A stretch of DNA of 34,010 nucleotides from Lysobacterales bacterium (GTDB lineage: Bacteria; Pseudomonadota; Gammaproteobacteria; Xanthomonadales; SZUA-36), in the NCBI GenBank assembly GCA_021648125.1, contig JAKITK010000034.1, forward strand, positions 1 to 34,010. Reading direction: 5' to 3'. Below, one piece after another: positions 3,465 to 24,082 of this stretch. The notes beneath the pieces are model-generated. The model was not told the DNA's origin. It searched no databases and saw only the letters and a list, made by a program, of their open reading frames with translations. The translations under genes and the position numbers were made by a program. Positions within the stretch are counted from its first letter, which is position 1; each line of letters starts with the position of its first letter.

Positions 3465-4847
3465 TTATGTAGACTTTTTATTGCTACGACTCTTATTCCA
3501 ACGCCGAGGTTTAGTACCCGGTTTTGCCGCACCCTGATTTTGACCTGCAGAGCGTTTTTTCGAACCGGGCCGTTGTTTGCGAGATTTATGCGAAGACGGT
3601 TTATGCCCACGGGCGTTTTCACCGGAACGCTGGCCATCACGGTGGCCGGCTTTGGCTTTTTTCGGGCTTTTGGGTTTGCTTACCCGGCGACCTAATTGCG
3701 TCTCAGGCACGCTATGCACTGGCTCGAAACCATCTACCAATCGGCGCTCTAAAAGCTCATTAAGCACATGCTCAATATCTGAAAGTTGCTTGGTTTCATC
3801 GGCACTTACCAGAGAAATAGCCAGACCTGATGACCCGGCCCTGCCGGTTCGCCCAATACGATGGACATAATCTTCTGGCACATTGGGCAAATCAAAGTTA
3901 ATCACACAGGGCAGTTGGTCAATGTCCAAACCACGGGCCGCAATATCGGTGGCTACCAGCACCTGCATTTTGCCATCTTTAAAGTCCCGCAAAGCCCGGG
4001 TTCGCGCCGCCTGGCTTTTATTTCCGTGAATCGCGGTGGCACTGATGCCTCTAGCATCTAAATATTTTGTCAGGCGGTTAGCACCATGTTTTGTACGACT
4101 GAAAACCAACACCTGGTGCCAGCTATTTTCCCGAATTAACTCGGTTAACAACGCAGATTTCTTGCTTTTATCCACTGGATGAATCCAGTGTTTAATCGTC
4201 TTAACCGCCGTATTTCTCGGCGTCACCGATATTTCAACCGGGTTTTTCACCAGCCCTTTGGCCAGTTTGCGAATCTCATCGGAAAAGGTGGCCGAAAACA
4301 TCAATGTCTGGCGGTTTTGGGGTAGCAAAGCAATGATTTTTTTAATATCGTGGATAAAACCCATATCCAACATACGGTCGGCTTCATCCAGCACCAGCAC
4401 TTCAAGTTGCTTGAATTTCATTGCGTTCTGGTTGTATAAATCCAGTAACCGGCCCGGCGTTGCAACTAATACATCAACTCCTTTACGCAACTTCATCATT
4501 TGCGGGTTGATCTTAACCCCGCCAAAAACTACCGCCGATCGTAATGGCAGGTACTTGCCGTACACCCGTACACTTTCTTGTACTTGCGCTGCCAGTTCAC
4601 GCGTTGGCGTCAAAATCAGTGTGCGTACCTGATTACCCCGCGCATGCTGACCTTTTGACAAGCGATCGAGTATCGGTAAGGTAAAGCCTGCGGTCTTGCC
4701 GGTGCCGGTTTGTGCTGCCGCCATTACATCCTTGCCCTCCAGCACGGCAGGTATAGCCTGTGCCTGGATAGGTGTTGGTGTGTCATAGCCTTCATCGGCT
4801 ATAGCTTTAAGTATGGGCTCGGATAAGCCCAGGTCAGTAAAATGCAT
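3465..4847 (-). CDS. rhlE: DEAD-box RNA helicase RhlE
   Basis: This 460-residue ATP-dependent RNA helicase has all the DEAD-box motifs: a Q motif at GYDTPTPIQ (20-28), Walker A AQTGTGKT (45-52), PTREL (81-85), TPGR (130-133), DEAD (154-157), SAT (185-187) and [10 protein letters not shown] near residue 330. The N-terminus matches RhlE rather than SrmB or DbpA. After the helicase core comes a basic Lys/Arg/Ser-rich tail (about 375-460) of the kind that binds RNA without sequence specificity. Family members act in ribosome maturation and RNA decay. The ATG has AAGAAGAG upstream. The first 54 bases of the gene end and its upstream region recur at 25802-25930. Confidence 0.95.
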
Positions 4848-4931
4848 GGATTATTCTCTTCTTGAATGCTATGGACCTGTAAAAGGTCTCTGGAGGGCGT
4901 GTAGCTTACAGTATCTTGTTGTTTTTAGCTA
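4790..4931. repeat. rhlE 5' end plus upstream region, duplicated copy A (direct repeat)
   Basis: Bases 4790-4843 match 25802-25855 at 51 of 54 positions, and 4862-4931 match 25861-25930 at 67 of 70. Between these blocks copy A has 18 bases containing the rhlE start codon and RBS where copy B has only 5. Both copies run in the same direction. Similarity ends abruptly at 4932, where the palindromic repeat begins. Confidence 0.9.
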
Positions 4932-4934
4932 TAT

Positions 4935-4975
4935 ATATTGAAGGGGAGCGGGTTAGGTACCGTCCCCTTCAATAT
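4935..4975. repeat. Long palindromic repeat with GGTACCGTCCCC core
   Basis: Perfect 13-bp arms, ATATTGAAGGGGA (4935-4947) and its complement (4963-4975), enclose a 15-base loop containing GGTACCG. The GGTACCGTCCC word recurs in the palindrome at 28255-28280, so the two are probably members of one dispersed palindromic family. Confidence 0.7.
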
Positions 4976-5015
4976 CCCCCTGTGTCTGGACAGGTGGCCA
5001 AAGAATGGGGGCATT

Positions 5016-5279
5016 TCAAACGACTCGGTTAAATACTTGCACAAACACGAACTTTCTCCTCAATGCCTCGATGGCTTCTACAGTTTCTGCTTTCGGTAGT
5101 TCAGTAAAGACATGTCGCAGATAAGCATACGGTTCCAGGCCATTGGCCTTGGCTGTCTCGATTAGCGAGTACAGGTTGGCACTGGATTTAACGCCTTTAA
5201 CCGAGGTGCTAAACAACCAGTTTTTCCGACCCAGCACGAATGGTCGGATGGTATTTTCTGCACCGTTATCGCTAAGGCG
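5016..5279 (-). pseudogene. IS66-family transposase, C-terminal remnant
   Basis: Read on the minus strand, the last 86 or so codons give the conserved end of IS66 TnpC: DNGAENTIRPFVLGRKNWLF, followed by a YSLIETAKANGLEPYAYLRHV stretch. The usual catalytic N-terminal two thirds (the whole protein is about 500 residues) is absent. Upstream of codon RLSD the frame runs into unrelated sequence that belongs to an IS91-type remnant on the other strand. This is a dead fragment, not a functional gene. Confidence 0.85.
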
Positions 5280-5416
5280 CCTACTCTTGGCGAAACCTGC
5301 GTTGAGTGCGGTGGTGATGTCAAGATCACCGTTCCTGCGCATCCATGCGCCCGCGGCATTAGTGCTTCCTTGCACCTCATCGCTTGTATCGCCTAAGTGC
5401 GCCTACTCTTGGCGAA
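5277..5416. repeat. 18-bp direct repeats at the IS66/IS91 junction
   Basis: GCGCCTACTCTTGGCGAA occurs at 5277-5294 and again at 5399-5416, 122 bases apart. The first copy marks the junction of the IS66 and IS91 fragments and the second interrupts the IS91 reading frame, so the repeat probably records a duplication or insertion during decay. Confidence 0.75.
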
Positions 5417-5530
5417 GACCCAACAGTTATTCAGAAGCTGCTCGCCCACCTTGATGACAGAGCTAGTCCGACAGACTTGAGCTTGTTACCTGAATGTCGG
5501 GTTCCATCAGCAACGGGGTTGTTTGACTGA
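5292..5530 (+). pseudogene. IS91-family transposase, C-terminal remnant
   Basis: The plus strand encodes pieces of an IS91-like transposase tail. ETCVECGGDVKI (from 5292) resembles the Cys-rich segment near the end of these rolling-circle transposases. In another frame from 5411 the final segment begins EDPTVIQKLLAHLDD and ends PECRVPSATGLFD with a TGA at 5528-5530. A stop (TAA 5394-5396) and the second copy of the 18-bp repeat separate the parts, so the gene is broken. The assignment rests on my recollection of the family's C-terminal pattern. Confidence 0.6.
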
Positions 5531-5875
5531 AAGAGCGCGCCCGGAAAAACTAGCTGCTTACTGATCCCGAGAAGGGACCGGTAAGTTTTCTATCGCCCCA
5601 AGCGTGAGAATTGGTGTAAAACGCACATGAATCCGGTTAGAATTCGGTGCTTGCTACTCAAACAGGCTCAAATTACGTGATAGTCTGCCTAAAAACCTGA
5701 TACGAATGGCAGTTCAGTACAGTATTTTGAGTTTTCTGGCTTTTCTGGTAATGTAGCGTTTAAACTACTTATACGCTGACTCATAGCATTTTGATGATAT
5801 TCGGAATGCTGATAATAGTAGCATCATATTAAACGACTTGATTTTTCAAGTACATTTGAGTAAAGGAAGAGGAAA
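5531..5875. other. Non-coding stretch after the IS91 remnant
   Basis: No gene is seen. The first 120 bases may be the 3' end of the IS91-like element and contain a small TCCC-GAGAA-GGGA hairpin near 5565-5577. From about 5650 the composition turns AT-rich, matching the unknown genes that follow. Confidence 0.4.
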
Positions 5876-5977
5876 ATGAGAACGTATGTTTTTAAGCAAA
5901 AAAGTACTAATAACCGAACCTCTCAAAATAGTTGTGTTTATAAGCCCTATATGCTTTTTACAAAGATTTTAAATTAA
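5876..5977 (+). CDS. Possible small ORF, 33 residues
   Basis: An ATG at 5876 follows a very strong purine ribosome binding site (AAGGAAGAGGAAA) and opens a 33-codon frame, MRTYVFKQKSTNN..., ending in TAA at 5975-5977. It lies 38 bases before the next gene. The product is basic and polar with no recognisable motif. The strong RBS is the only support; it could be a leader peptide, a real small protein, or chance. Confidence 0.35.
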   Translation: MRTYVFKQKSTNNRTSQNSCVYKPYMLFTKILN

Positions 5978-6015
5978 AAAATTACCCTATTTAACTTACA
6001 AACTGGAGAACTAAA

Positions 6016-6828
6016 ATGAAAAATAAATTATTTTTCATCCTGGCACAAGTTGCAATCGCAACTGGTACTGTTGTTCCTGCTCAGTCAAAGGCTGTCGAAA
6101 CAATAGAACACTATGGCGTTTATGTAGCGGCTAAAAACGGGTATATTAAGCTTGAGCCTTATAAACACTCAGGTGATTTTGTTGATTTTAAACATTTAAG
6201 CGAGTTACCAAGCGTTGAACGAGCGGATGAAAGCTTAAAACTGGTTGTTTTTCAAAAAAGTTTCGATGAAGAATACTTGGCTATAAAATATAGACCGATC
6301 CAGACCACCATAGATATTAGAGAAATTAAGTTTAATATCAAGCCTTTGGAAAAAGAAGATATGTATGAACTGACTACTGAGCAACCTATTTCTACAGGAG
6401 CGATTCTACAAGTTCAATCTGGTTCTTGGGGAACGAATATGAATGTTATTGTACTGGGTGACACTCAAAAAGAGTTGGAAAAATATTTTTCTCGTAAAGA
6501 TCTTGATGATCCCTATGTCGTTAAACTTTATCTGGATGATGCTCTTATAGCCTATCCTGAAAACTCAACGTTAAATGGCCTTAGTAATTACTGGGGCAAA
6601 GAGGCCAAGAAACAAAAAGCAGCAAAGACATATGGTTACGTCCAAACCGAATGGGGAAAATATGAAGGAACAAAAAAAATCAATCTTCGGATTCGGTACC
6701 TTAAAAGTTTAATTGGAGAAATCAACGGATACCTGAATGACCACGCTGATGGCGAAAAAGCCGAAGAGGCCAAAGAAAGAAAACTTTATGCCGAAAAGAA
6801 GCTTCAAGAGCTTCAGGAACAGCTTTAG
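6016..6828 (+). CDS. Unknown exported protein, 270 residues
   Basis: I do not recognise this protein. It begins with a Sec-type signal (MKNK, hydrophobic residues 5-20, probable cleavage near AQSKA at 22-26), so it is probably periplasmic or outer-membrane associated. The middle is mixed beta-strand-like sequence without Cys. The last 50 residues are Lys/Glu-rich (KAEEAKERKLYAEKKLQEL) and should form a charged helix or coiled coil. GGAG sits nine bases before the ATG. The gene is AT-rich compared with the core genes and is flanked by IS remnants on one side and a MITE-like element on the other, so horizontal origin is likely. Confidence 0.75.
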   Translation: MKNKLFFILAQVAIATGTVVPAQSKAVETIEHYGVYVAAKNGYIKLEPYKHSGDFVDFKHLSELPSVERADESLKLVVFQKSFDEEYLAIKYRPIQTTIDIREIKFNIKPLEKEDMYELTTEQPISTGAILQVQSGSWGTNMNVIVLGDTQKELEKYFSRKDLDDPYVVKLYLDDALIAYPENSTLNGLSNYWGKEAKKQKAAKTYGYVQTEWGKYEGTKKINLRIRYLKSLIGEINGYLNDHADGEKAEEAKERKLYAEKKLQELQEQL

Positions 6829-9235: not shown

Positions 9236-10528
9236 CTATTGGTTTGCTGCCGGTAGCTTGTTCAGACAGCTACCAAGTAGCGCCATACCCTCATCGATGA
9301 GCTCCATGGGAATGGTTAGTGCCGGTAAAAACCGGATAACATTGCCGCGGATGCCACAAGAAAGCAGGATAACGCCTTTTTCTGCCGCTGCTGCGACCAG
9401 TGCTTTGGTTAAGTCGGCATCGGGCTGGCTGGCATCACCGGCCTTAACCAGTTCCATTGCAATCATCGCGCCGCGATAACGAATATTTCCGATTCGATCA
9501 GGATGAGCCTGCTGTAGTTTACACAGGTGCTGGTTAAACCTTTCACCGACCTGGTTGGCACGCGCTATCAGGTTCTCTTCCTGTATAACCTCAAGCACAG
9601 CTAATGCAGCAGCACAACCCAGCGGCGAACCACCATAGGTTCCGCCAAGTCCACCGGGGTGCGGGGCATCCATAATTTCAGCCTTGCCAGTGACTGCCGC
9701 AATCGGAAAACCGCCGGCAATACCCTTGGCTTGAGTAATCAAGTCGGGTTCGACACCGGAATGCTGCATACAAAACATTTTTCCGCTACGACCAAAGCCA
9801 GTCTGGATTTCATCGGCGATAAACACAATGCCATAACGGTCACAAATATCCCGTAAGGCTTTAAGGAAATTATCCGGAGCCGCATAAAAGCCGCCCTCGC
9901 CTTGAACCGGCTCAATAATAATGGCAGCAATATCTTCGGGATCAATCTCCACCTTAAACAAAGTTTCAAGATCAGTAATGGCAGTTTCCACTGAAACCCC
10001 GTGATAATCAACAGGGAAGGGCGAGTGATAGATTTCCGCCGGAAACGGCCCAAATGATTTTTTATACGGCATAACTTTACCGGTTAAACCCATAGTCAAA
10101 TGGGTCCGCCCATGGAAGCCACCGTTAAATGCAATAACTCCACGACGACCGGTATAAGAACGGGCTATCTTAATCGTGTTCTCAACCGCCTCTGCACCGG
10201 TGGTAACAAAAATCGTCCGGCAATCAGCGGTGATAGGCGCGGCAGCATTAAGTTTTTCTGCCAGTTCAACCGCAGATTCATACGGTGTGACCATCACACA
10301 GGTATGGCTGAAACGCTCAAGCTGCTCTGCCACAGCAGCCTGTACTTTAGGGTGACTGTGGCCGGTATTTACCACAGCGATACCGGTACCAAAATCGATA
10401 TAACGCTTACCCTCTACATCCCATAGCTCGGCATTTTTGGCGCGCTCGATATAGATACCATTGGCGTTGCCCTGACCGCGCGCGAAGGCAGCCAGTTTGC
10501 GTTGTTGTAAATCCTGATTGTTAGCCAT
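9236..10528 (-). CDS. gabT: 4-aminobutyrate aminotransferase GabT
   Basis: The 430-residue PLP enzyme transfers the amino group of GABA to 2-oxoglutarate, giving succinic semialdehyde and glutamate. The PLP lysine is Lys268 in ITQAKGIAGG, the cofactor Asp is 239 in IADEIQTGFGR, and Glu211 (VQGEGG) is the residue that distinguishes GABA enzymes from ornithine enzymes, all in E. coli GabT numbering. TTGAHLTMGL-type residues near 140-150 also fit. Its ATG starts one base after the gabD stop, so the two are coupled and made in equal supply. Confidence 0.93.
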   Translation of the reverse strand: MANNQDLQQRKLAAFARGQGNANGIYIERAKNAELWDVEGKRYIDFGTGIAVVNTGHSHPKVQAAVAEQLERFSHTCVMVTPYESAVELAEKLNAAAPITADCRTIFVTTGAEAVENTIKIARSYTGRRGVIAFNGGFHGRTHLTMGLTGKVMPYKKSFGPFPAEIYHSPFPVDYHGVSVETAITDLETLFKVEIDPEDIAAIIIEPVQGEGGFYAAPDNFLKALRDICDRYGIVFIADEIQTGFGRSGKMFCMQHSGVEPDLITQAKGIAGGFPIAAVTGKAEIMDAPHPGGLGGTYGGSPLGCAAALAVLEVIQEENLIARANQVGERFNQHLCKLQQAHPDRIGNIRYRGAMIAMELVKAGDASQPDADLTKALVAAAAEKGVILLSCGIRGNVIRFLPALTIPMELIDEGMALLGSCLNKLPAANQ

Positions 10529-12181: not shown

Positions 12182-12242
12182 TTAATAGATCCAGATGTGT
12201 TAGTTTAATAGAGCCAGATAATACGCTATGTGTCTGACATAG
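12182..12242. promoter_or_regulatory. Direct-repeat operator and adjacent dyad between gabD and its regulator
   Basis: TTAATAGATCCAGAT (12182-12196) and TTAATAGAGCCAGAT (12205-12219) differ at one base and are 23 bp apart centre to centre, about two helical turns. GabR/MocR-type regulators are known to bind direct repeats in their divergent promoters. A separate dyad, CTATGT-GTCTG-ACATAG (12226-12242), lies 20 bases before the regulator start. A TAATAC -10 candidate overlaps the second repeat at 12219-12224. The remaining divergent bases (11985-12181) show nothing definite. Confidence 0.65.
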
Positions 12243-12261: not shown

Positions 12262-14106
12262 ATGCAATTTTTAATCAGTCTTGATCCTGAGAGCAATCTT
12301 AGCCTACAACACCAAATTCGACAAAAACTGGTTGAAGCCATACTTTCAGGCGCACTACCAACCGGTGAACGCCTGATTTCTTCACGCAAGCTCTGCCAAC
12401 AGCTAAAAGTCTCTCGCAATACCGTAGTGCTGGCCTTCAGCCAGCTGGTTGACGAGGGCTATCTGCTCAGTCGCGAACGCAGCGGTTTGTTTGTGAACAG
12501 CCAAATCCTTGAAGGCAGAATTGGCTACAGCGTTAAACCCAGCGAGCCAAAAGCTGAACGCCAGCGGTGGCTGCAAAAGATTAAAATCAGCGGCCTCGGC
12601 AGACAACAACATAACTTCCCTGATGACTGGCAAAACCATCCATACCCCTTTATTGATGGTTATTTTGATGCACCCTTATACCCGGTATCGCAATGGCAGG
12701 AAGCCAGCCGACTGGCTTTCGGGGCACTGCAAACCCGTCAGATAGCTGCTGAAAGTACCGCAGATGACCCCATGTTGATTGACCAAATACGCACCAAAAT
12801 CTTGCCCAGACGCGGAATTTCTGCAAACCGAGATGAAATTCTCATCACTTCGGGCAGCCACCATGCACTCTACCTTTTGGCTAATTTATTGACCAATAAA
12901 CGCAGTCGCGTGGCCATGGAAGATCCGGGATCACCCGCGCTGAGGAGTTCGCTGGCACTGACCCGCAGCATACTGCAACCACAGCCGATTGATGAGCATG
13001 GCCTGATAGTCGATGAGCGACTAAATGATTGCGATCTGGTCTTTGTTACCCCCAGTCATCAACTCCCAACCGCGGTTACCATGCCTATGGCCAGACGCAA
13101 ACAACTCATTGCCCAGGCTCGTCGGCTTGACCAGCTGATTATTGAAGATGATTCTGAATGTGAAAGAAACTATCTGGCTGCCCCGCAACCGGCTATTCGT
13201 AGCCTGGATACTGAAAACCGGGTGATTTATCTATCCTCCCTGCCCAAAGCATTGGCTCCCGGCCTGGGTCTTGGCTTTATTGTCGCTGCACCTAGCCTGA
13301 TCAGGGGAGCCCGGCGCCTCAGGCGGCTGATGGTTGGCAACCCGCCTAAAAGCAATCAACGAACTGCCGCTTTCTTTATCTCTCTGGGACACTACGATGC
13401 ATTTATGTCACGCATCAATAAAATTTTCAGCCAGCGCTGGAATGCCCTGCGCGATGCCCTCAATCATTATTTACCGGACTCGATAAAAACCATTCCTAAT
13501 CAGGGTGGCACCGCGTTTTGGGTAAGCTGCCCGCCACAGTTGTCCGTTCAGGATTTGGTATCTGAGGCCGCAAAGTCAGGCATATTGATCGAGCCTGTTG
13601 CAGACTATTATGCTGATCCGGAATATTTCCAAAAACACGCTGATGAGCAATGTTTTCGCATGGGGGTAACCAGCCTTGATGAAACCAAAATTCGCCAGGG
13701 TGTTAAAAAGCTGGCCGAGCTGATCCGCGAGCTTTCCGGCAAACAATGGATCACCCTCGAAAATCATCCGCATAAACCCCTCAGTGGAAAACAAATACAC
13801 CAACAACTGGCAGGTGCAACGCTATTGACCAAAACGGTGTATGGCGCGCCCTGCACAATAGAGCTGAAGGCCAACGGATCGATGCTGGGTTGTGCAGGTC
13901 ATGCCGGGGAAGAACACGATGCAGGACGCTGGTGGATTGAGGACAACCGCTGGTTCCGCCAGTGGGACGACTGGGCCTATGGTGAAAAGTTAGGCTTTTA
14001 TGTTACTGTGCATGCCGGTCAAATTTCGTGGTTTAATCAAAACGGGCGGATTATCGATACCGCTGTAATCAAACAAAATGACAGCCTAAAACCGCAACTG
14101 GTCTAG
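12262..14106 (+). CDS. MocR/GabR-type regulator with extra C-terminal domain
   Basis: This 614-residue protein has an N-terminal GntR winged helix (about 8-80; SRKLCQQLKVSRNTV) and a fold-type I aminotransferase domain (about 125-490), with the PLP lysine probably Lys329 in SSLPKALAPG and Asp296/Asp297 in IIEDDSE. GabR-like proteins use PLP to sense GABA or related amines. Normal members end near 470-500 residues. Here about 110 further residues (505-614) add a small domain rich in Trp and Gly (MLGCAGHAGE, DAGRWWIEDNRW) resembling lipocalin-like or DUF995-type stress domains. Divergent gabDT is the likely target. Confidence 0.85.
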   Translation: MQFLISLDPESNLSLQHQIRQKLVEAILSGALPTGERLISSRKLCQQLKVSRNTVVLAFSQLVDEGYLLSRERSGLFVNSQILEGRIGYSVKPSEPKAERQRWLQKIKISGLGRQQHNFPDDWQNHPYPFIDGYFDAPLYPVSQWQEASRLAFGALQTRQIAAESTADDPMLIDQIRTKILPRRGISANRDEILITSGSHHALYLLANLLTNKRSRVAMEDPGSPALRSSLALTRSILQPQPIDEHGLIVDERLNDCDLVFVTPSHQLPTAVTMPMARRKQLIAQARRLDQLIIEDDSECERNYLAAPQPAIRSLDTENRVIYLSSLPKALAPGLGLGFIVAAPSLIRGARRLRRLMVGNPPKSNQRTAAFFISLGHYDAFMSRINKIFSQRWNALRDALNHYLPDSIKTIPNQGGTAFWVSCPPQLSVQDLVSEAAKSGILIEPVADYYADPEYFQKHADEQCFRMGVTSLDETKIRQGVKKLAELIRELSGKQWITLENHPHKPLSGKQIHQQLAGATLLTKTVYGAPCTIELKANGSMLGCAGHAGEEHDAGRWWIEDNRWFRQWDDWAYGEKLGFYVTVHAGQISWFNQNGRIIDTAVIKQNDSLKPQLV

Positions 14107-14118
14107 TCTTAACCTCTA

Positions 14119-14198: not shown

Positions 14199-15059
14199 AT
14201 GTCGAAATTTGCAATAGCCGGGCTCCAACTGGAGCTGGATAATAAAAACAATTTACCAATGCTGGCGAAAGAAATTGATACCGCCATGGCGCGCTTCCCA
14301 TGGATCGATATGCTGGTACTGGGTGAGCTATGTGCATACGGCACCAATACTGGTCACGCTCAGAAGAAGGGCGAAGAAATTGAGATTTTTTTCAGCAAGT
14401 TGGCAGCAAAACACAATGTTTGGCTAATTCCCGGCTCCTATTTTCAATCCATATCAGATCAAATCTATAACACCGCAATAGTGATTAATCCGGCAGGAGA
14501 AATTATCGAGCGATATCACAAATTTTACCCTTTTTATCCTTACGAAAAAGGCGTGAGTGCCGGCGATCACTTTGTAGTTTTTGAGGTGGCCGGTATCGGC
14601 AAATTCGGTGTGATGATTTGTTATGACCAGTGGTTTCCCGAGTTGACCCGTAATCTTTGCTGGATGGGTGCTGAAGTGATTATCTGCCCGACAATGACCA
14701 ATACTATTGACCGAAAAAACGAACTGGTGCTGGCGCAGGCAAATGCCATCAGCAACCAGTGTTATTTCATCAATATTAACTCTGTGGGCAAGCTCGGTTA
14801 TGGCGAATCTATTATTTTCGGACCTGAGGGAGAAACCATCCACAAAGCAGGTTTTGGCAGTGAATTGATCGCCGTTGAACTGAATCTAGAGCATGTCCGC
14901 AATGTGCGCGAACGCGGCATTCACGGTCTAGGGCAGGTATTAAAAAGCTTTCGTGATCACCCGGTTGAATACCCCGTATACCTGGACAGGAAGAACCCCG
15001 GGGCATTTGCTGAATTGGGTGAACTGGAGACACCAAAATCAAAATACAGGGGTTCCTGA
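14199..15059 (+). CDS. Nitrilase-superfamily carbon-nitrogen hydrolase
   Basis: The 286-residue enzyme has the Glu-Lys-Cys triad of the superfamily: Glu43 (LGELCAYG), Lys108 (RYHKFYP) and Cys141 (ICYDQWFPE). The CYDQWFPE block is closest to the CWDQWFPE of N-carbamoylputrescine amidohydrolases, but the rest diverges, so the exact amide substrate is unknown. GAGG at 14189-14192 supports the start. Position after the MocR-type regulator and the shared operator suggest a role in releasing GABA or a related amine from an amide or carbamoyl precursor, which is inference. No signal peptide is seen, so it should be cytoplasmic. Confidence 0.85.
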   Translation: MSKFAIAGLQLELDNKNNLPMLAKEIDTAMARFPWIDMLVLGELCAYGTNTGHAQKKGEEIEIFFSKLAAKHNVWLIPGSYFQSISDQIYNTAIVINPAGEIIERYHKFYPFYPYEKGVSAGDHFVVFEVAGIGKFGVMICYDQWFPELTRNLCWMGAEVIICPTMTNTIDRKNELVLAQANAISNQCYFININSVGKLGYGESIIFGPEGETIHKAGFGSELIAVELNLEHVRNVRERGIHGLGQVLKSFRDHPVEYPVYLDRKNPGAFAELGELETPKSKYRGS

Positions 15060-15135: not shown

Positions 15136-15200
15136 AACAGGGATATCCCGAACTGGACTCATGGTCACACAAGAACTGGTCCTACAAGATGACATACAGC

Positions 15201-15254: not shown

Positions 15255-17648
15255 ATGAAACCGCAAAAAGTTAATATATCCAATGTTTTACAGCGCACTA
15301 GCATCGCCAGCGCAATCTCAATAGCTCTACTTTCCAGCGCAAACATCTGGGCCGAAGAAACGGCGCAGGAACCCACGGCAATGGAAACTGTAACCGTCAC
15401 CGCTAACCGCCGGGAAGAGACCGTCTTGGAAATCCCCTATAACATCTCGGCCGTTACCGGCGACTTTATCAACAACGCGCAGATTAACGACAATGCAGAA
15501 CTGATGCGATATATTCCGGGGGTTACCGTTGTCGACCGCGGCCAGAGAAACTCTGGGGTCATTAACTCCATCATGATCCGCGGCTTGAATGTCGATGGTT
15601 CTGCATTTGGAGATTATGCTCTTTCCACGGTACCCACGGTTTCCACCTACATAAATGACACCCCAGTCTATGCAAACTTTGTACTCAAAGACCTTGACCG
15701 GGTTGAAGTATTGCGCGGGCCCCAGGGAACACTCTATGGTTCTGGTTCATTGGGCGGGACAGTTAAGTATATTCTCAACAAACCGGATATCTCTGAGTTT
15801 TTCGGTAAAGTCACTACCGACCTGAGCTCAACCGAAGGTTCCGACGGCCTCAGTTGGGCTGCCGACCTGATGCTTAACATTCCCCTCGGAGATACTATGG
15901 CGGTACGCTTTGTTGGCGGAAAGATTGATTATTCAGGTATTACCGACTATGTAAATATCTATGAGCTTGATGCAAACCGTATTCCGATTGCTCCCGATGG
16001 CCCGCTTGCCGGTACGGCGAAATACAAGAGTGTGAAAGATGCCGATACTGTCGATATTGATTATGGTCGGCTGTCTTTCCTGTTTGAGCCCAATGATTCA
16101 TTCTCCGTACTAGTTCTCTACCAGACCCAGTCCGATGACATTGGTGGTCGGCGCCAGCAAACAGTAGGTAAAGACGGCCGGGGTGAGGATTATAAAGATT
16201 ACCAGAATGGTTCCATCCAGCTCGAACCTTCATCTCGTGATGTTGATATGCTCAGTCTGGAAATGGACCTCGACCTCGGCTTTGCGACCCTCACCAGTAG
16301 CACATCCAGCTATGATCAGAACGGTGAGAGCATCAGTGAAAATACTGGGTTCTATGCCCAGAACAATTGGCTTGCCGGGTTTTACTATAACTACCCGCGA
16401 CCCATGGCAGAAGCCAGGCGCAGCTATGCTGATGAGGCATTTATCCAGGAACTGCGTCTGGTTTCAGATACCGGCGGAAAGTTTGACTACATTGTCGGCG
16501 CGTTTTACCTAGACCAGGATCTCGACGCCACACAGGAAAGCTACCTGCGCGGTTTTAAAATCTGGGCGGATAATGCTTTCGGCCCCGGGGTTGTGGTCAG
16601 CGACCGAGATTTCAACTACAACCGAAAACAAAGTTATACCGACCTTTCCTTATATGGCGAGCTTACCTGGCACTTTACAGACTCCTTCCGGATGACCTTC
16701 GGTGGCCGTTACTACGACACAAAATTTGTTAATACTACGGTTATGGCTGTTGGGCTATACGCAGGCTTTTCACCCGAAGATACCGCTTATTTCAAAGATA
16801 CCGATAGCGGCACCCTGTTTAAAGCGAATTTCTCTCTGGATCTGGGTGACAACCAGCTCCTGTATGGCACCATCTCCGAAGGCTATCGTCGCGGCGGTGC
16901 TAATGCAGTGCCTATAAGCGGCGTTTTTGCTGAAAATCCTGCTTGGCAATTCTATAAGCCTGACAGTGTGACCAACTACGAGTTTGGCATCAAGGGCCTC
17001 GCCGGTCGTATCCAGTATAATTTCGCTGCCTTCTATATGGACTGGGAAGACATTCAGATCAACACAGCAACAACCAACTGGGGGTTTTTTGCCGCTCAAA
17101 ACGGTGGCGGTGCCAGAAGCATGGGGTTGGAAGCAGAATTGTCCGGCTCTCTCGGTGATGAAGCACAGTGGCAGTACGGCCTCGGCTATGCTTATGTAAA
17201 TGCAGAGCTGACGGATGATGTATTCGCACCCAGCGATCCTGGTCAAATGTTCCCGGTTGCGAGCGACGGCACCCGCCTGCCGGGCACCCCTGAGCACTCA
17301 TTCAATGCCTTTATTGCCAATACCCAGGCATTCGCCAACGGCTGGTACTGGACCAATCGTGCCGGGCTTTATGCCCAATCAGATACTGAAAATGCTATTA
17401 GTTCTTCTGTCCGTTTTGCTGAAACCATGAATGGTTTTGCGCTGTTGGATCTTGCTTCCAGTCTTGTAATCCAAAACTGGACTACTACCTTATGGATCAA
17501 AAATGTGGCCAATGAAAAGGGCGTAACTGGCGTCTTCAAAGAAGAGTATATGGGAACATCGCCGGACCAAAATTATTTTGGTAATGGTTCCAAACAGTTT
17601 ATTGCGACCCCGAGAACTATTGGCATAACCGTCTCGTTTGACTTTTAA
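15255..17648 (+). CDS. TonB-dependent outer-membrane receptor
   Basis: A 797-residue receptor for energy-dependent uptake across the outer membrane. A signal peptide (about 1-33, ending ANIWAEE) is followed by a TonB-box-like ETVTVTANRR (44-53), a plug domain (about 55-170, with SIMIRGLNVDG and VEVLRGPQGTLYGSGSLGG) and a 22-strand-type barrel ending in SFDF, with the usual terminal aromatic. The length fits the family, and the sequence resembles the broad marine TonB receptor group rather than a defined siderophore receptor. A strong terminator follows, so it is its own transcript. The substrate is unknown; neighbours suggest an organic ligand. Confidence 0.92.
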   Translation: MKPQKVNISNVLQRTSIASAISIALLSSANIWAEETAQEPTAMETVTVTANRREETVLEIPYNISAVTGDFINNAQINDNAELMRYIPGVTVVDRGQRNSGVINSIMIRGLNVDGSAFGDYALSTVPTVSTYINDTPVYANFVLKDLDRVEVLRGPQGTLYGSGSLGGTVKYILNKPDISEFFGKVTTDLSSTEGSDGLSWAADLMLNIPLGDTMAVRFVGGKIDYSGITDYVNIYELDANRIPIAPDGPLAGTAKYKSVKDADTVDIDYGRLSFLFEPNDSFSVLVLYQTQSDDIGGRRQQTVGKDGRGEDYKDYQNGSIQLEPSSRDVDMLSLEMDLDLGFATLTSSTSSYDQNGESISENTGFYAQNNWLAGFYYNYPRPMAEARRSYADEAFIQELRLVSDTGGKFDYIVGAFYLDQDLDATQESYLRGFKIWADNAFGPGVVVSDRDFNYNRKQSYTDLSLYGELTWHFTDSFRMTFGGRYYDTKFVNTTVMAVGLYAGFSPEDTAYFKDTDSGTLFKANFSLDLGDNQLLYGTISEGYRRGGANAVPISGVFAENPAWQFYKPDSVTNYEFGIKGLAGRIQYNFAAFYMDWEDIQINTATTNWGFFAAQNGGGARSMGLEAELSGSLGDEAQWQYGLGYAYVNAELTDDVFAPSDPGQMFPVASDGTRLPGTPEHSFNAFIANTQAFANGWYWTNRAGLYAQSDTENAISSSVRFAETMNGFALLDLASSLVIQNWTTTLWIKNVANEKGVTGVFKEEYMGTSPDQNYFGNGSKQFIATPRTIGITVSFDF

Positions 17649-19313: not shown

Positions 19314-21027
19314 CCGCATACAGGTCATCTTCAACCTGCTAATGTTCTTTGGCCTCGCTGGCACGCTTCAGGCAGAGGACTCACAAAATCAAATCAGCTT
19401 TGAATGGCTGAAACAAACGATAGCCCCTACCAGCCCGGTGAACACCTCCGCATTCGTCCGCCCGCCACAAGCGAAGCCAGCCGACAGCTCTTTCTCTGGA
19501 CAGCTGGAGCTTAGTACCGGAAAAACGCCCACATATTTCAAGTTGCTGAAAGATTCTTTCAAAACTACAAAATCACAATCTGCACGGATAGCCGAGTTAC
19601 CTCGTATCGCGTTTAATTTTGTTCAGACAGGCGATAATATTGTTCCTGAAATACGCTCGCTAATCACAGGAGACCACCCTTACTGGGAATGGTTGGTCGG
19701 ACCTGGAAAAATCTGGGTATATGCAGCCGACCCGGGGTTTTACCGTATCGCTCTACCGCTTAGCTTGCAGGAAAAAAACGCTAACTGCACACATAACGGT
19801 TACTTGCTGATTCTGCTTCAGAAGAACGGAGGAAGCGGGCCGGGATTGTTGCAAATTACGGCTGAAACCTGCGGATATTTACAGTTCGACATGGTCGCGA
19901 AAATGGATGTTGCCTTCACTCCGAAGGCTATCGCCCGGCAAGACGAGCTGATTAATGAGTTCAAACTAGAAAGGCAAAACCGGCTTCCGAGCTTTACCAT
20001 CAACGAACTCACCAAAGACTATCCACAGCTGGATATCAACACCCTGCTAGGCACAAAACAACGGCAAGCAATAACATCCGGCTTAGTGATTAATGGAAAA
20101 CATTATCGCCTGCACTGTGGCGGCCGTTATGGTCCTGAGCCTTATTGTGACGAGCTTGCCTTACCTTCTTATTCAACTGCGAAAAGTATTTTTGCCGGCA
20201 TCGCACTGATGCGTATGGAAGCAAAATACCCCGGGGTTGGCAATATCGCTGTGACCCGGGTTATCCCGGAGTGCGCTGATACGCTTTGGCGGGGAGTGAG
20301 CTTGAATCATTTACTGAATATGCGCAGCGGTAACTACCGTAGCCGTAAGGCCGAAGCTGATGAAGCCAGCGAGCGGATGGTGGATTTTTTTGTTGCTACA
20401 AGCCACGCCGAAAAACTTGAGCTTGCCTGCAACATGTTTCCGCGCAAAACCAAGCCCGGCAAACACTTTGTCTACCACACCTCCGATACCTACCTCGCAG
20501 GTGTGATGCTAAACCGCTTATACCAGCGCTTTGAGGGAAAAACGGATATTTATACCGATTGGTTTGCAGCAGACTTATGGAAAGACCTGGGGCTTTCACC
20601 CCTGCTGGCCACAACAAAGCGCACTTACGATAAAGTTAAACAACCTTTAACCGGTGTTGGTTTAACCTATAACATTGATGACATCATTAAAATCTCACAA
20701 TTTCTTTTTTCCCAGCTAGAAACCAGCACACCGATCCTCGACCGCAAGCTATTGGCTAACGCCTTGCAGCGCGATCCAGTGAGCTTGAATTTTGTCGGCG
20801 ACAGCCCCGAACTAGCTTACAATAGTGGCTTTTGGGCCTTGGAAGTCAGTAAAAGCTTGGGCTGTAAAAACCCTCGATGGATTCCCTTTATGTCTGGCTA
20901 TGGCGGAATAACCATAGCCCTAATTTCACCTGAGCTGATGTATTACAACTATGCCGATGACTATCAGTATCGCTGGCTGGCGGTAGTAAAAGAGCTCGGC
21001 CGCCAATTTGATCTTTGTGAGGAGTAA
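19306..21027 (+). CDS. Exported serine hydrolase, beta-lactamase/PBP fold
   Basis: This 573-residue protein starts with GTG inside the end of the sulfotransferase gene (8-base overlap), suggesting coupled translation. A signal peptide (about 1-23, ending LQAED) precedes an unassigned N-terminal region (about 24-240). The C-terminal half looks like a serine beta-lactamase family protein: Ser290 and Lys293 in SYSTAKS, a Tyr390 motif VYHTSDTYLAG, and GYGG (531-534) where the third motif would lie. This family includes class C beta-lactamases, esterases and D-peptidases. The substrate is not predictable. It should act in the periplasm. An ATG at 19342 would truncate the signal peptide, so GTG is preferred. 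Confidence 0.75.
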   Translation: MPSRIQVIFNLLMFFGLAGTLQAEDSQNQISFEWLKQTIAPTSPVNTSAFVRPPQAKPADSSFSGQLELSTGKTPTYFKLLKDSFKTTKSQSARIAELPRIAFNFVQTGDNIVPEIRSLITGDHPYWEWLVGPGKIWVYAADPGFYRIALPLSLQEKNANCTHNGYLLILLQKNGGSGPGLLQITAETCGYLQFDMVAKMDVAFTPKAIARQDELINEFKLERQNRLPSFTINELTKDYPQLDINTLLGTKQRQAITSGLVINGKHYRLHCGGRYGPEPYCDELALPSYSTAKSIFAGIALMRMEAKYPGVGNIAVTRVIPECADTLWRGVSLNHLLNMRSGNYRSRKAEADEASERMVDFFVATSHAEKLELACNMFPRKTKPGKHFVYHTSDTYLAGVMLNRLYQRFEGKTDIYTDWFAADLWKDLGLSPLLATTKRTYDKVKQPLTGVGLTYNIDDIIKISQFLFSQLETSTPILDRKLLANALQRDPVSLNFVGDSPELAYNSGFWALEVSKSLGCKNPRWIPFMSGYGGITIALISPELMYYNYADDYQYRWLAVVKELGRQFDLCEE

Positions 21028-21031
21028 TCTA

Positions 21032-22198
21032 TTGTTCACTTTCCCAAAAACCAAAGCCAATAGCATGGTGACCCGCGTATTGCTGGCATTCCTGACCACT
21101 GCCGGCCTGTTCTATGTCAACATCATGCCGGCCCTGGTTGACGGCCTTAAAGAAGCCCTGCACTTTAGTAACCAGCAAGCCGGATTAATAGGCTCGGCGA
21201 ATGTTTATGGTGCCGCCGTCGGAGCTTTTGCTGTGGTCTTTTTCGTACATAAAATCCAGTGGCGAAAAATTGCCATACTGTTCCTCTCCGGCCTGATAAT
21301 TATAGACCTGATATCGATTAATATAACTTCAGCAACACCACTAACTATCATCCGTTTTTTTCATGGCTGTATCGGCGGTGCATTGGTGGGTATCGGCTTT
21401 GCTACTATTGTTAAAACAAAGGCTCCTGATCGCACATTCGGCATGTTGTTGCTGGTGCAATTTGGTTTTGGTGGTCTGGGCATGTTATTAATACCGCAAC
21501 TGGTAGAACAATTCGGCATCAGCGTGCTGTATATCAGCCTGATACTTTTCAGCTTGGCTACCTTGCTGATGGTCCCGTTTATACCAGATTTCGATCATCT
21601 TGAAAGCAAAAAACCTTCTGGCTCAAGCTGGAAAATGCTAGCCAGCAAACCCCTCATCCTCGCCCTGATAGCTATCTTCCTGTTCCAGGCCGCCAATATG
21701 GGGCTCTACGCCTTCATTGTCGGCCTGGGAAAGCATTATGGTCTTAGCATTGAGTTTATTAGCGTTACCCTGGCATGGGCAGCCTGGGTTGGGATCGCCG
21801 GAGCCGTGTTGGTGATCTGGCTTTCAACCCGATACGGTCTATCAAAACCACTGATTTTTGGCATCAGCCTGACAGCTCTTGGTACATGGGCACTCATATA
21901 CAGCGGTAACCACACTATCTGGATTCTTGCCAATATGGGGGTTGGGATTACCTGGGCCTTTGTGATTCCTTATCTGTTTTCAATTTGCGCGAAACTGGAC
22001 ACCAACGGTCAAATTGCAGCCATGAGTGGAATGGCCTCAAAACTTGGGCTTGCATCAGGGCCTGTGGTCACCGGTATCCTTTTAGGCACAGATAACTATC
22101 AACGGGTGATTATTATAGCCACCGTTATTATATTACTGAGCCTGGTGGTGGCGCTGGCCGCTGTGAAGTCACTACCCGGAGGAGTAAAAACTATTTAA
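21032..22198 (+). CDS. Major facilitator superfamily transporter
   Basis: The roughly 388-residue protein has 12 predicted membrane helices and MFS features, including an N-terminal GLFYVNIMPALVDGLKEAL segment and a YbfB/YjiJ- or CynX-like small-MFS look. I chose TTG at 21032 because a perfect GAGGAG ribosome binding site (21019-21024) lies seven bases upstream. ATG at 21065 is possible; a frame from 21008 would place the RBS inside the gene. It begins four bases after the serine hydrolase stop, completing a three-gene operon. The substrate and direction are unknown. Confidence 0.82.
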   Translation: MFTFPKTKANSMVTRVLLAFLTTAGLFYVNIMPALVDGLKEALHFSNQQAGLIGSANVYGAAVGAFAVVFFVHKIQWRKIAILFLSGLIIIDLISINITSATPLTIIRFFHGCIGGALVGIGFATIVKTKAPDRTFGMLLLVQFGFGGLGMLLIPQLVEQFGISVLYISLILFSLATLLMVPFIPDFDHLESKKPSGSSWKMLASKPLILALIAIFLFQAANMGLYAFIVGLGKHYGLSIEFISVTLAWAAWVGIAGAVLVIWLSTRYGLSKPLIFGISLTALGTWALIYSGNHTIWILANMGVGITWAFVIPYLFSICAKLDTNGQIAAMSGMASKLGLASGPVVTGILLGTDNYQRVIIIATVIILLSLVVALAAVKSLPGGVKTI

Positions 22199-22957: not shown

Positions 22958-24082
22958 ATGATTAAAAGAGCCCTTATTAAACAAATCACCAAGAAATTAA
23001 TGGACAAAAAAGTGATTGTATTGCTTGGACCCAGGCAAGTGGGTAAAACAACGCTGTTAAAAAACCACTTTGTCAATGATGAAACATTACTACTCAATGG
23101 AGACGATGCTGACGTGAGGTTACAGTTGTCCAACGCCTCAAGCACCTACCTCAAACAAATTATAGGAAAAAACAAAAGGCTTATTGTTGATGAAGCCCAA
23201 CGCATAGAAAATATAGGGCTGACCTTAAAAATATTGCACGATGAATTGCCCCAGGTAAAAGTCATAGCCACAGGATCATCGGCCTTTGAATTATCCAACA
23301 AAATCAACGAACCGCTAACAGGGAGGAAGTGGGAGTTTAAAATGTGGCCAATATCTATGCAAGAAATGATAGAGCACCGATCCTTGCTAGAAGAATCCCG
23401 ATTATTAGAACACCGCCTGATTTATGGCTGGTATCCCGATGTCATAAATAATCCTGGTGAAGAAATTGATATTTTAAAACAACTCTCTGACAGTTATTTG
23501 TACAAAGACTTGTTGACATGGGAAGACATAAAGAAACCGCAGAAATTAGAAACCTTGGTGCAAGCACTTGCATTTCAAATTGGACAACAGGTTTCTTATC
23601 ATGAATTGGGACAAACTGTCGGTCTCAATAATGAAACAGTTCTGCGTTATATTGGCTTATTGGAAAAAGCCTTTATTATCTTTAGGCTGCCATCATTCAG
23701 CAGAAACTTACGCAATGAGTTGAAAAAGAGCCGCAAAATCTATTTTTATGATGTGGGCATCCGCAATGCCGTTATCAAAAATTGGAACCCTGTGACACTG
23801 CGCCAGGACATTGGTGCCTTATGGGAAAATTTTCTGATAGTCGAACGATTGAAACATAAATCCTACCATGGACTTTATAGCAATGACTATTTCTGGCGCA
23901 ATCAAGCCCAACAGGAAATTGATTTTATCGAAGACTATGCAGGGGTTATTCATGCTTATGAATTCAAATGGAACCCAAAAAGTAAAGCAAAATTCAGTAA
24001 ATCCTTTACCCGTGCTTATGAGAACCATCAATTGATGACAGTCAATAAAAGCAACTATTTAGACTTCACCCAAAAGGAATAA
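22958..24082 (+). CDS. AAA ATPase with DUF4143 domain
   Basis: The 374-residue protein has an AAA_14 ATPase core with Walker A GPRQVGKTT (24-32), Walker B RLIVDEAQ (74-81), sensor-type TGSSAF (105-110) and EPLTGR (118-123), then the DUF4143 C-terminal domain with a nuclease-like fold. These proteins are widespread and often patchily distributed, commonly near mobile regions; their role is not established. The ATG follows an AT-rich region with TATATA boxes but a weak RBS. It stands alone between the decayed frame and the minus-strand unknown genes. Confidence 0.88.
   Translation: MIKRALIKQITKKLMDKKVIVLLGPRQVGKTTLLKNHFVNDETLLLNGDDADVRLQLSNASSTYLKQIIGKNKRLIVDEAQRIENIGLTLKILHDELPQVKVIATGSSAFELSNKINEPLTGRKWEFKMWPISMQEMIEHRSLLEESRLLEHRLIYGWYPDVINNPGEEIDILKQLSDSYLYKDLLTWEDIKKPQKLETLVQALAFQIGQQVSYHELGQTVGLNNETVLRYIGLLEKAFIIFRLPSFSRNLRNELKKSRKIYFYDVGIRNAVIKNWNPVTLRQDIGALWENFLIVERLKHKSYHGLYSNDYFWRNQAQQEIDFIEDYAGVIHAYEFKWNPKSKAKFSKSFTRAYENHQLMTVNKSNYLDFTQKE

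What the first reader, a model, noticed from the sequence alone, without database searches (positions are those of the whole stretch)
12262..14106. MocR/GabR regulator with an added ~110-residue C-terminal domain
Canonical MocR proteins end at the aminotransferase domain (about 470-500 residues). Here residues 505-614 form an extra domain with a Trp/Gly/Asp pattern (MLGCAGHAGE, DAGRWWIEDNRW) like lipocalin-like or DUF995 stress domains. It may add a second ligand sensor or control dimer contacts. I do not know a described regulator of this build.
Basis: partly seen in the sequence, partly recalled or inferred. Interest (0 to 1): 0.6.

Follow-up and report, generated by a model that had tools for sequence, protein, structure and literature searches.

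The report
MocR regulator with added barrel domain
This is a real three-part gene regulator: a DNA-binding head, an enzyme-like middle whose vitamin-B6 pocket has decayed, and an extra small beta-rich domain at the end, and it appears to control a neighbouring set of genes for importing and breaking down an unknown nitrogen compound.

Summary
ORF 12262-14106 encodes 614 aa: GntR wHTH (16-78), aminotransferase (AAT) domain (to ~490) and an extra domain at about 507-604. It is no frame error: the tail recurs in 22 MocR proteins that form one clade.

Two findings go further. (1) In tail-bearing proteins the PLP pocket has decayed: Schiff-base Lys, Asp279, Arg319 and an aromatic at 205 (GabR numbering) are all present in 0 of 22, against 49 of 49 tail-less MocRs. 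(2) The gene heads a conserved cluster (amidase, TonB receptor, TPR-sulfotransferase, serine hydrolase) with a 23-bp-period direct-repeat operator, CTGGNNNNAT-N13-CTGGNNCTAT, like TauR's. In the window three copies face gabDT, the amidase and the receptor.

Best reading: a TauR/GabR-type regulator that no longer uses PLP in the classical way, its ligand sensing moved to a rebuilt pocket and/or the tail. That the tail is the sensor is inferred. New variant of a known kind.

The parts
12262..14106 (+). MocR regulator with C-terminal extra domain, 614 aa
   Evidence: orthologues
12307..12495 (+). GntR winged helix-turn-helix, residues 16-78
   Evidence: Pfam PF00392 E 1.8e-12
12757..13713 (+). 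aminotransferase fold-type-I domain, residues 166-484, with degenerate PLP pocket: K329 kept (GabR K312), D296 kept (D279), but G336 (R319), S224 (Y205), L268 (F250), S298 (Y281), D448 (R430)
   Evidence: Pfam PF00155 E 1.1e-12; mapping by GabR alignment; states
13780..14073 (+). added C-terminal domain, residues about 507-604; predicted one helix and eight strands; remotely DUF995-related
12185..12217 (-). operator O1: direct repeat, 23-bp period, reading towards gabD; its other end is 44 bp from the regulator's start codon
14098..14130 (+). operator O2: direct repeat, 23-bp period, one mismatch in the first box, which overlaps the regulator's stop codon; reads towards the amidase gene
15153..15185 (+). 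operator O3: direct repeat, 23-bp period, one mismatch; in front of the TonB-dependent receptor
   Evidence: counterparts in other genomes
14199..15059 (+). carbon-nitrogen hydrolase (nitrilase-superfamily amidase), first gene of the conserved cluster
   Evidence: Pfam PF00795 E 9.6e-35
15255..17648 (+). TonB-dependent receptor
   Evidence: Pfam PF00593, PF07715
17709..19313 (+). TPR-sulfotransferase
   Evidence: Pfam PF13469
19306..21027 (+). beta-lactamase-fold serine hydrolase, weak match
   Evidence: Pfam PF00144 E 5.1e-5, 23 bits, below the cut-off of 27
21008..22198 (+). MFS transporter (start codon uncertain)
   Evidence: Pfam PF07690
10530..11984 (-). gabD, succinate-semialdehyde dehydrogenase, divergent from the regulator
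   Evidence: NCBIfam TIGR01780, above cut-off
9236..10528 (-). gabT, 4-aminobutyrate transaminase
   Evidence: NCBIfam TIGR00700, above cut-off

Best explanation
A DNA-binding regulator of the TauR/GabR branch of the MocR family whose lineage gained, once, a DUF995-related beta-rich domain at its C-terminus and lost the constraint to hold PLP in the classical way. It binds as a head-to-tail dimer to direct repeats with a 23-bp period in front of an amide-uptake and hydrolysis cluster (amidase, TonB-dependent receptor, sulfotransferase, serine hydrolase) and, in the window's genus, in front of the GABA-degradation genes gabDT and its own gene. Effector sensing has moved from PLP-aldimine chemistry to a rebuilt pocket and/or the added domain, which would bind the effector, probably an amine or amide linked to GABA, and change how the DNA-binding heads are set. 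Shown by sequence: architecture, one clade, pocket decay, conserved repeats, conserved neighbours. Inferred: that the repeats are this regulator's operators, the head-to-tail dimer (from GabR), activation, PLP independence, the tail as sensor, the effector class.
For: Tail-bearing MocRs form one clade (99/97; 94/87, in 92% of bootstrap trees, with more rows and the trait columns masked). K312+D279+R319+aromatic 205 complete in 0 of 22 tail-bearing and 49 of 49 tail-less. Lys is R/A/S in 9 of 22; the tree needs at least 5 changes at this site, all inside the tail clade. EnuR Lys302His cannot take up PLP and acts as a constitutive repressor (PMC8739950, passages), so a natural protein without this Lys needs another way of induction. 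Half-site CTGGNNCTAT in or at the regulator-amidase gap in 18 of 20 loci against 0.056 expected from shuffles, with a second box 23 bp away in 17 of the 18. At E 1e-30 the amidase gene occurs in the same 16 family genomes in which the MocR match reaches the tail. MocR-fused tails have near-invariant residues that are rare in the non-MocR copies (C531 19 of 22 against 0 of 27; Y573 19 against 0; D599 20 against 1; E575 19 against 1; E550 21 against 2; Y527 21 against 3), and 0 of 22 keep the Cys pair seen in 22 of 27.
Against: Lys is still present in 13 of 22, the window included. In 8 of 22 (L011, L012, L014-L019) Lys, Asp and Arg are all kept and only the aromatic 205 (and Tyr281 in 7) is missing, so such members may still hold PLP. 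The AAT Arg386-equivalent (window R466) is kept in 22 of 22, so the old pocket probably still binds something. 5 of 8 fetched regions with a tail-less relative show the same kind of repeat beside the MocR gene, under a looser rule, so the tail is not needed for DNA recognition. Two of 20 loci (L039, L048) lack the exact half-site. There is no confident structure, no ligand and no expression data. Whether tail gain or pocket decay came first is not resolved.
Confidence: 0.55

Rival explanations
1. The tail is a structural or protein-contact module (dimer, tetramer or RNA-polymerase contact), and the altered AAT pocket alone senses a new ligand without PLP.
For: Arg466 is kept in 22 of 22 and several pocket positions changed in a clade-specific way (N at 205 in 11 of 22, H at 430 in 11 of 22). 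The tail evolves faster than the core (84 and 87% against 92% identity within the genus).
Against: The tail has near-invariant polar and aromatic residues specific to the MocR-fused copies, as a binding site would, though an interface could too. It belongs to a family of small domains that often stand alone.
Confidence: 0.3
2. An ordinary PLP-dependent MocR of the GabR/TauR kind; PLP is still bound, covalently or not, and the tail is a minor accessory.
For: Lys in 13 of 22 and Asp279-equivalent in 19 of 22; Lys, Asp and Arg together in 8 of 22. gabDT next door and an operator facing gabD in the window genus.
Against: At least five changes at the Lys site; [quoted passage not shown] Asp279 is Asn in three.
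Confidence: 0.13
3. The tail is the normal end of the aminotransferase domain, or a frame error.
For: None found.
Against: GabR's match ends where the tail begins; the tail is conserved in 22 proteins and absent from 49 controls.
Confidence: 0.01

Closest known systems
TauR (MocR-type activator of taurine utilisation)
   Same: wHTH plus AAT; direct-repeat operator whose half-site CTGGACYTAA (PMC5320631, passages) resembles CTGGNNCTAT here; 6 of 8 fetched regions of tail-less relatives have a class-III aminotransferase homologue within the region.
   Different: Added domain, decayed PLP pocket, cluster of amidase, TonB receptor and sulfotransferase. No taurine gene was recognised among the window genes that I annotated; the rest of the genome was not searched for them.
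GabR of Bacillus subtilis
   Same: Same two-domain core (4mgr aligned over residues 4-489); gabT and gabD adjacent in the window genus.
   Different: In the window the Y205, R207, F250, Y281, R319 and R430 equivalents are changed; extra domain. GabR's operator repeats are known to me only from recall and the passages.
Pfam DUF995 and small secreted-looking alphaproteobacterial proteins
   Same: W/G pattern; one homologue of the tail is a Pfam DUF995 member.
   Different: Fused to a cytoplasmic regulator; the Cys pair of the others is lost; the window tail itself gives no DUF995 match.
EnuR (ectoine regulator)
   Same: MocR architecture.
   Different: EnuR's PLP Lys is conserved in all 278 members inspected (PMC8739950, passage); here it is replaced in 9 of 22.

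Membership tests
MocR/GabR subfamily of GntR regulators | N-terminal GntR wHTH joined to a fold-type-I aminotransferase domain | tested here: met
MocR/GabR subfamily of GntR regulators | PLP-binding core: Schiff-base Lys312 and Asp279, with stacking aromatic 205 (GabR numbering, PMC6677901) | tested here: not met
   Window: Lys and Asp kept, aromatic 205 lost (S224), and R319 lost (G336). Clade: all four in 0 of 22. So it is a MocR by architecture but departs from the PLP-binding core.
MocR/GabR subfamily of GntR regulators | binds PLP | not testable with these tools
   needs purified protein
TauR orthologous group | direct-repeat operator with CTGGACYTAA-like half-sites | tested here: met
   repeats; consensus from PMC5320631 (passages); that the protein binds them is not shown
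TauR orthologous group | controls taurine genes (tauABC, tauXY, tpa, xsc) | tested here: inconclusive
   credible repeats in the own genome only before gabD, the amidase and the TonB receptor; two one-mismatch hits were not examined and taurine genes were not searched for
TauR orthologous group | groups with characterised TauR proteins on a tree | not tested
   no named TauR sequence was fetched
Pfam DUF995 (PF06191) | score over the curated cut-off of 20 bits | tested here: not met
   window tail: no match at E 1 or 0.1. Relationship only through a bridging homologue; the second DUF995 protein does not bridge well
lipocalin-like fold | eight-stranded barrel | tested here: inconclusive
   one helix and eight strands predicted at pLDDT 65; best Z 4.3

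The most novel reading that the evidence does not exclude
A lineage of MocR regulators that replaced its PLP-based effector sensor: gain of a domain otherwise found mostly in envelope proteins freed the aminotransferase pocket from PLP, so that the PLP Lys, Asp, Arg and stacking aromatic were lost piecemeal, and the recruited domain now reads the effector. It would be a first case, as far as my searches show, of sensor replacement inside the PLP-dependent transcription-factor family.
Probability: 0.35. Interest if true: 0.8.

Novelty: new variant of a known kind. Interest (0 to 1): 0.6.

Why it matters
MocR factors are the standard example of regulators that keep an enzyme's cofactor chemistry to sense metabolites. 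A clade that gained a new domain and lost the cofactor pocket, while keeping its kind of operator and a conserved gene cluster, would show how such a regulator can change sensor. It also gives a testable regulon for an unknown TonB-imported nitrogen compound tied to GABA catabolism.

Tried and rejected
Frame error or normal end of the AAT domain: rejected.

Direct family assignment of the tail: no Pfam or NCBIfam hit for the window tail; other members gave only weak or below-cut-off hits. No PDB sequence relative (best E 0.4 for the tail and 0.049 for a profile, the latter a glutamyl-tRNA synthetase, judged chance). Foldseek with the tail model gave nothing below E 0.88; VIA-align gave Z at most 4.3 to assorted barrels. 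The full-length model is poor over the AAT domain (mean pLDDT 51.8, pTM 0.28), so where the tail packs was not read from it; its best Foldseek matches are GabR, PdxR and aminotransferases. DUF995 as a bridge family: only 2 of 190 alphaproteobacterial genomes hold a member over the cut-off.

Wider regulon in the window's genome: the strict repeat pattern hits once in 3.2 Mb, at O1. With one mismatch there are 9 hits, 3 of them O1, O2 and O3. I looked at four of the other six: the two C13 hits lie in one short tandem-repeat array that to my eye looks like a mobile-element end, and the C78 and C53 hits lie inside mechanical ORFs. The last two (C9, C85) were not looked at.

Rows dropped: L024 (cut by contig end) and L132 (its best ORF duplicates L129) from the residue counts; these and L115, L117-L120 from the first tree (43 of 50 rows used); the second tree used 56 of 71 rows. 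L007 (27-residue match, Halomonas) was not counted. L018 (in-frame stop) and L005 (frameshift) were counted with the part that is readable. For the comparison of fused and other tails I used 27 non-MocR copies and left out the proline-rich group (L077, L078, L080, L081, L083, L085, L087, L089, L091, L093), L068, L086, L092, L034, second copies or second readings of the same genes, and the 8 of 38 matches that came without a locus. The repeats were counted in 20 of 22 loci: L049 has no amidase gene nearby and G025's locus is split between contigs. Aromatic 205 and Arg319 were chosen as markers after seeing the alignment and PMC6677901, so the 0-of-22 figure is partly post hoc; Lys312 and Asp279 are named in that paper as conserved. 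The repeat consensus was read from these same loci before being counted in them.

Full report
The reading frame. Window 12262-14106 (+) is one open frame of 614 codons. Pfam finds GntR at residues 16-78 and Aminotran_1_2 at 166-484; the best NCBIfam model is the MocR-like PdxR (330 bits against a cut-off of 320, residues 15-484). The solved GabR chain 4mgr aligns with residues 4-489. The last 120 residues or so are therefore extra. In the window they match nothing in Pfam or NCBIfam.

Distribution. With the full protein, the match reaches the tail in 16 of 61 genomes (the window's and 60 relatives), all of them within the 37 genomes of the window's family; one of the 16 (G025) has an in-frame stop, and one further genome (G023) is cut by a contig end. 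With the tail alone, a phylum-wide draw gave 9 of 299 genomes: 3 are MocR fusions (window, G134, G298), 5 are small free-standing proteins of 127-155 aa whose N-terminus looks like a signal peptide by eye, 1 is a 64-aa fragment. A profile of the tail gave 7 of 369 gammaproteobacterial genomes, 2 of them MocR fusions including the window, and 29 of 385 alphaproteobacterial genomes with 38 matches, of which 30 came as loci and 1 of those is a MocR fusion. With the full protein, 46 of the same 385 genomes have a MocR at E 1e-80, and only G134's match runs into the tail (three candidates scored per genome). Relatives from named records are an Aliikangiella, an 'Oceanospirillales', a 'Proteobacteria', an 'Enterobacterales' and a Caulobacteraceae MAG (the second and third have the contig lengths of G003 and G001). 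The set of distinct tail-bearing MocRs used below has 22 members.

What the tail is. The other matches are mostly small secreted-looking proteins, or C-terminal modules of larger ones: by inspection, two tandem copies behind what looks like a nucleotide-cyclase domain (L058, L059), behind protein-kinase-like domains (L071, L074), and at the end of proline-rich proteins (L078, L080 and others; these domain names are read by eye and recalled, not searched). One of them, from G814, matches the tail profile at E 1.1e-6 and passes Pfam's DUF995 threshold (20.9 bits; a shorter piece scores 19.3). Against this link, the other DUF995 protein found (G809) does not match the tail profile and only weakly the broader profile. 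The tail is thus DUF995-related, remotely. AlphaFold on six sequences gives one helix and eight strands at mean pLDDT 65 and pTM 0.62; the full-length job repeats these elements with pLDDT about 60-85 in that stretch, though the whole model is poor. Structure comparison is weak. Of 27 non-MocR copies compared, 22 have a Cys pair at two fixed columns; 0 of 22 MocR-fused copies do, which fits a move from the envelope to the cytoplasm. The fused copies have their own near-invariant residues: Y527 (21 of 22 against 3 of 27), C531 (19 against 0), E550 (21 against 2), Y573 (19 against 0), E575 (19 against 1), D599 (20 against 1); others such as P530 (22 against 8) and R566 (21 against 4) are shared with a minority.

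The PLP pocket. PMC6677901 (discussion section read; passages) states that Lys312 and Asp279 of GabR are conserved across all MocR clusters and that an aromatic at 205 seems to be required. In 49 tail-less MocRs (26 distinct, 23 more; 32 in the sister groups, 17 more distant), Lys312, Arg319, Asp279 and an aromatic at 205 are present in 49 of 49. In the 22 tail-bearing ones the counts are 13, 15, 19 and 2; all four together 0 of 22. Eight of the 22 keep Lys, Arg and Asp and lack only the aromatic (and Tyr281 in seven); the two with the aromatic lack the Lys. The role of Arg319 in phosphate binding is recalled. The window keeps Lys329 and Asp296 but has Gly336, Ser224 and Ser298. In its sister L002 (91% identical) the Lys codon AAA is AGG, two base changes. 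On trees of the core, tail-bearing proteins are one clade (99/97; 94/87 with the trait columns masked), and the Lys site needs at least five changes, the Arg site three and the Asp site two, all inside it. In EnuR, Lys302His abolishes PLP uptake and makes the protein a constitutive repressor (PMC8739950, passages). Natural proteins without this Lys therefore probably work by another route, or are constitutive; their conserved cluster argues against simple decay.

Neighbourhood. Of 21 regions with a tail-MocR, the CN-hydrolase gene is beside it in 20, the TonB-dependent receptor follows in 20, the TPR-sulfotransferase in 19 and the serine hydrolase in 17, from the window's family to Aliikangiella, Caulobacteraceae and another alphaproteobacterium. 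L049 lacks all four and has gabT and gabD instead; the other gaps are in L040, L005 and L039, where the region ends early or the order is changed. The CN-hydrolase occurs at E 1e-30 in 17 of 61 genomes, the 16 in which the MocR match reaches the tail plus G050, where it sits beside a gabT homologue with no MocR in the region. That, and the gabDT neighbours in the window, L002, L003, L004 and L049, tie the cluster to GABA; the other tail-MocR regions show no gabDT. One tail-less relative (L148) also has a 55% identical CN-hydrolase about 3 kb away.

Operator. The stretch from the end of the regulator to the amidase holds CTGGNNCTAT exactly in 18 of 20 loci (0.056 expected from shuffles; not in L039 and L048), with a second CTGG box 23 bp upstream at no more than one mismatch in 17 of the 18 and 22 bp upstream in L006. 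Searching all 288,066 bases of these loci for the double box gave 22 hits: 17 there, 3 upstream of the regulator facing gabD (window, L002, L003) and 2 at +867 from the amidase start, before the receptor (L044, L046). In 39 family genomes exact double boxes occur in 12 of 16 with the tail-MocR, 0 of 21 without it (G023 counted here), and in 2 more whose MocR I did not examine; with one mismatch the pattern loses specificity (32 of 39). The half-site resembles TauR's CTGGACYTAA (PMC5320631, passages). Under a looser rule, 5 of 8 fetched regions of tail-less relatives (L149-L152, L154; not L148, L153, L155) have such a repeat beside the MocR gene, and L049 has one before gabD, so the operator probably predates the tail.

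Reading. The protein is a MocR by architecture and TauR-like by operator, but it does not meet the PLP-core part of the family's definition. The best-supported mechanism is control of the amidase and receptor cluster, and in this genus of gabDT, by a regulator whose sensing no longer rests on classical PLP chemistry. Whether the added domain or the rebuilt pocket binds the effector is open.

Literature. Searches for a MocR with an additional domain or without its Lys found none (listings; passages seen in PMC6677901, PMC5320631, PMC8739950, PMC4944035 and PMC6522883, and one section). The library lacks most subscription papers, so this is weak evidence of novelty. DUF995 occurs in one paper, listing only.

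Noticed in passing
window 14098-14107: The first operator box overlaps the regulator's last codons and stop; the same overlap is seen in L002, L003, L006, L041, L045 and L047 (positions).
   Followed up: partly
L146 (G050) 4194-6602: A gabT homologue (58%) directly followed by the amidase homologue (47%) with no MocR in the 16-kb region, suggesting the amidase releases GABA or a GABA-like product.
   Followed up: partly
L051, L052, L053, L054: Free-standing homologues of the tail lie near thymidylate kinase and DNA polymerase delta-prime genes, in three of the four also a D-Ala-D-Ala carboxypeptidase homologue, in three a DPBB lytic-transglycolase homologue.
   Followed up: partly
L058, L059, L071, L074: Homologues of the tail as C-terminal modules of what look like membrane-bound nucleotide cyclases (two tandem copies) and protein kinases.
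   Followed up: no
L018 and L005: The MocR frame is broken (in-frame TAA in L018, frame change in L005); pseudogene or assembly error.
   Followed up: no
L007 5965-6288: A Halomonas MAG has a short stretch like the tail (27 residues, 56% identity) in a 107-aa ORF, perhaps a decayed copy.
   Followed up: no
L182 about 3615-3670: Short 23-bp-period tandem repeats in the window's own genome (C13), also in G031; look like a mobile-element end, not an operator.
   Followed up: partly
window 22958-24082: DUF4143/AAA_14 ATPase beyond the conserved cluster.
   Followed up: no
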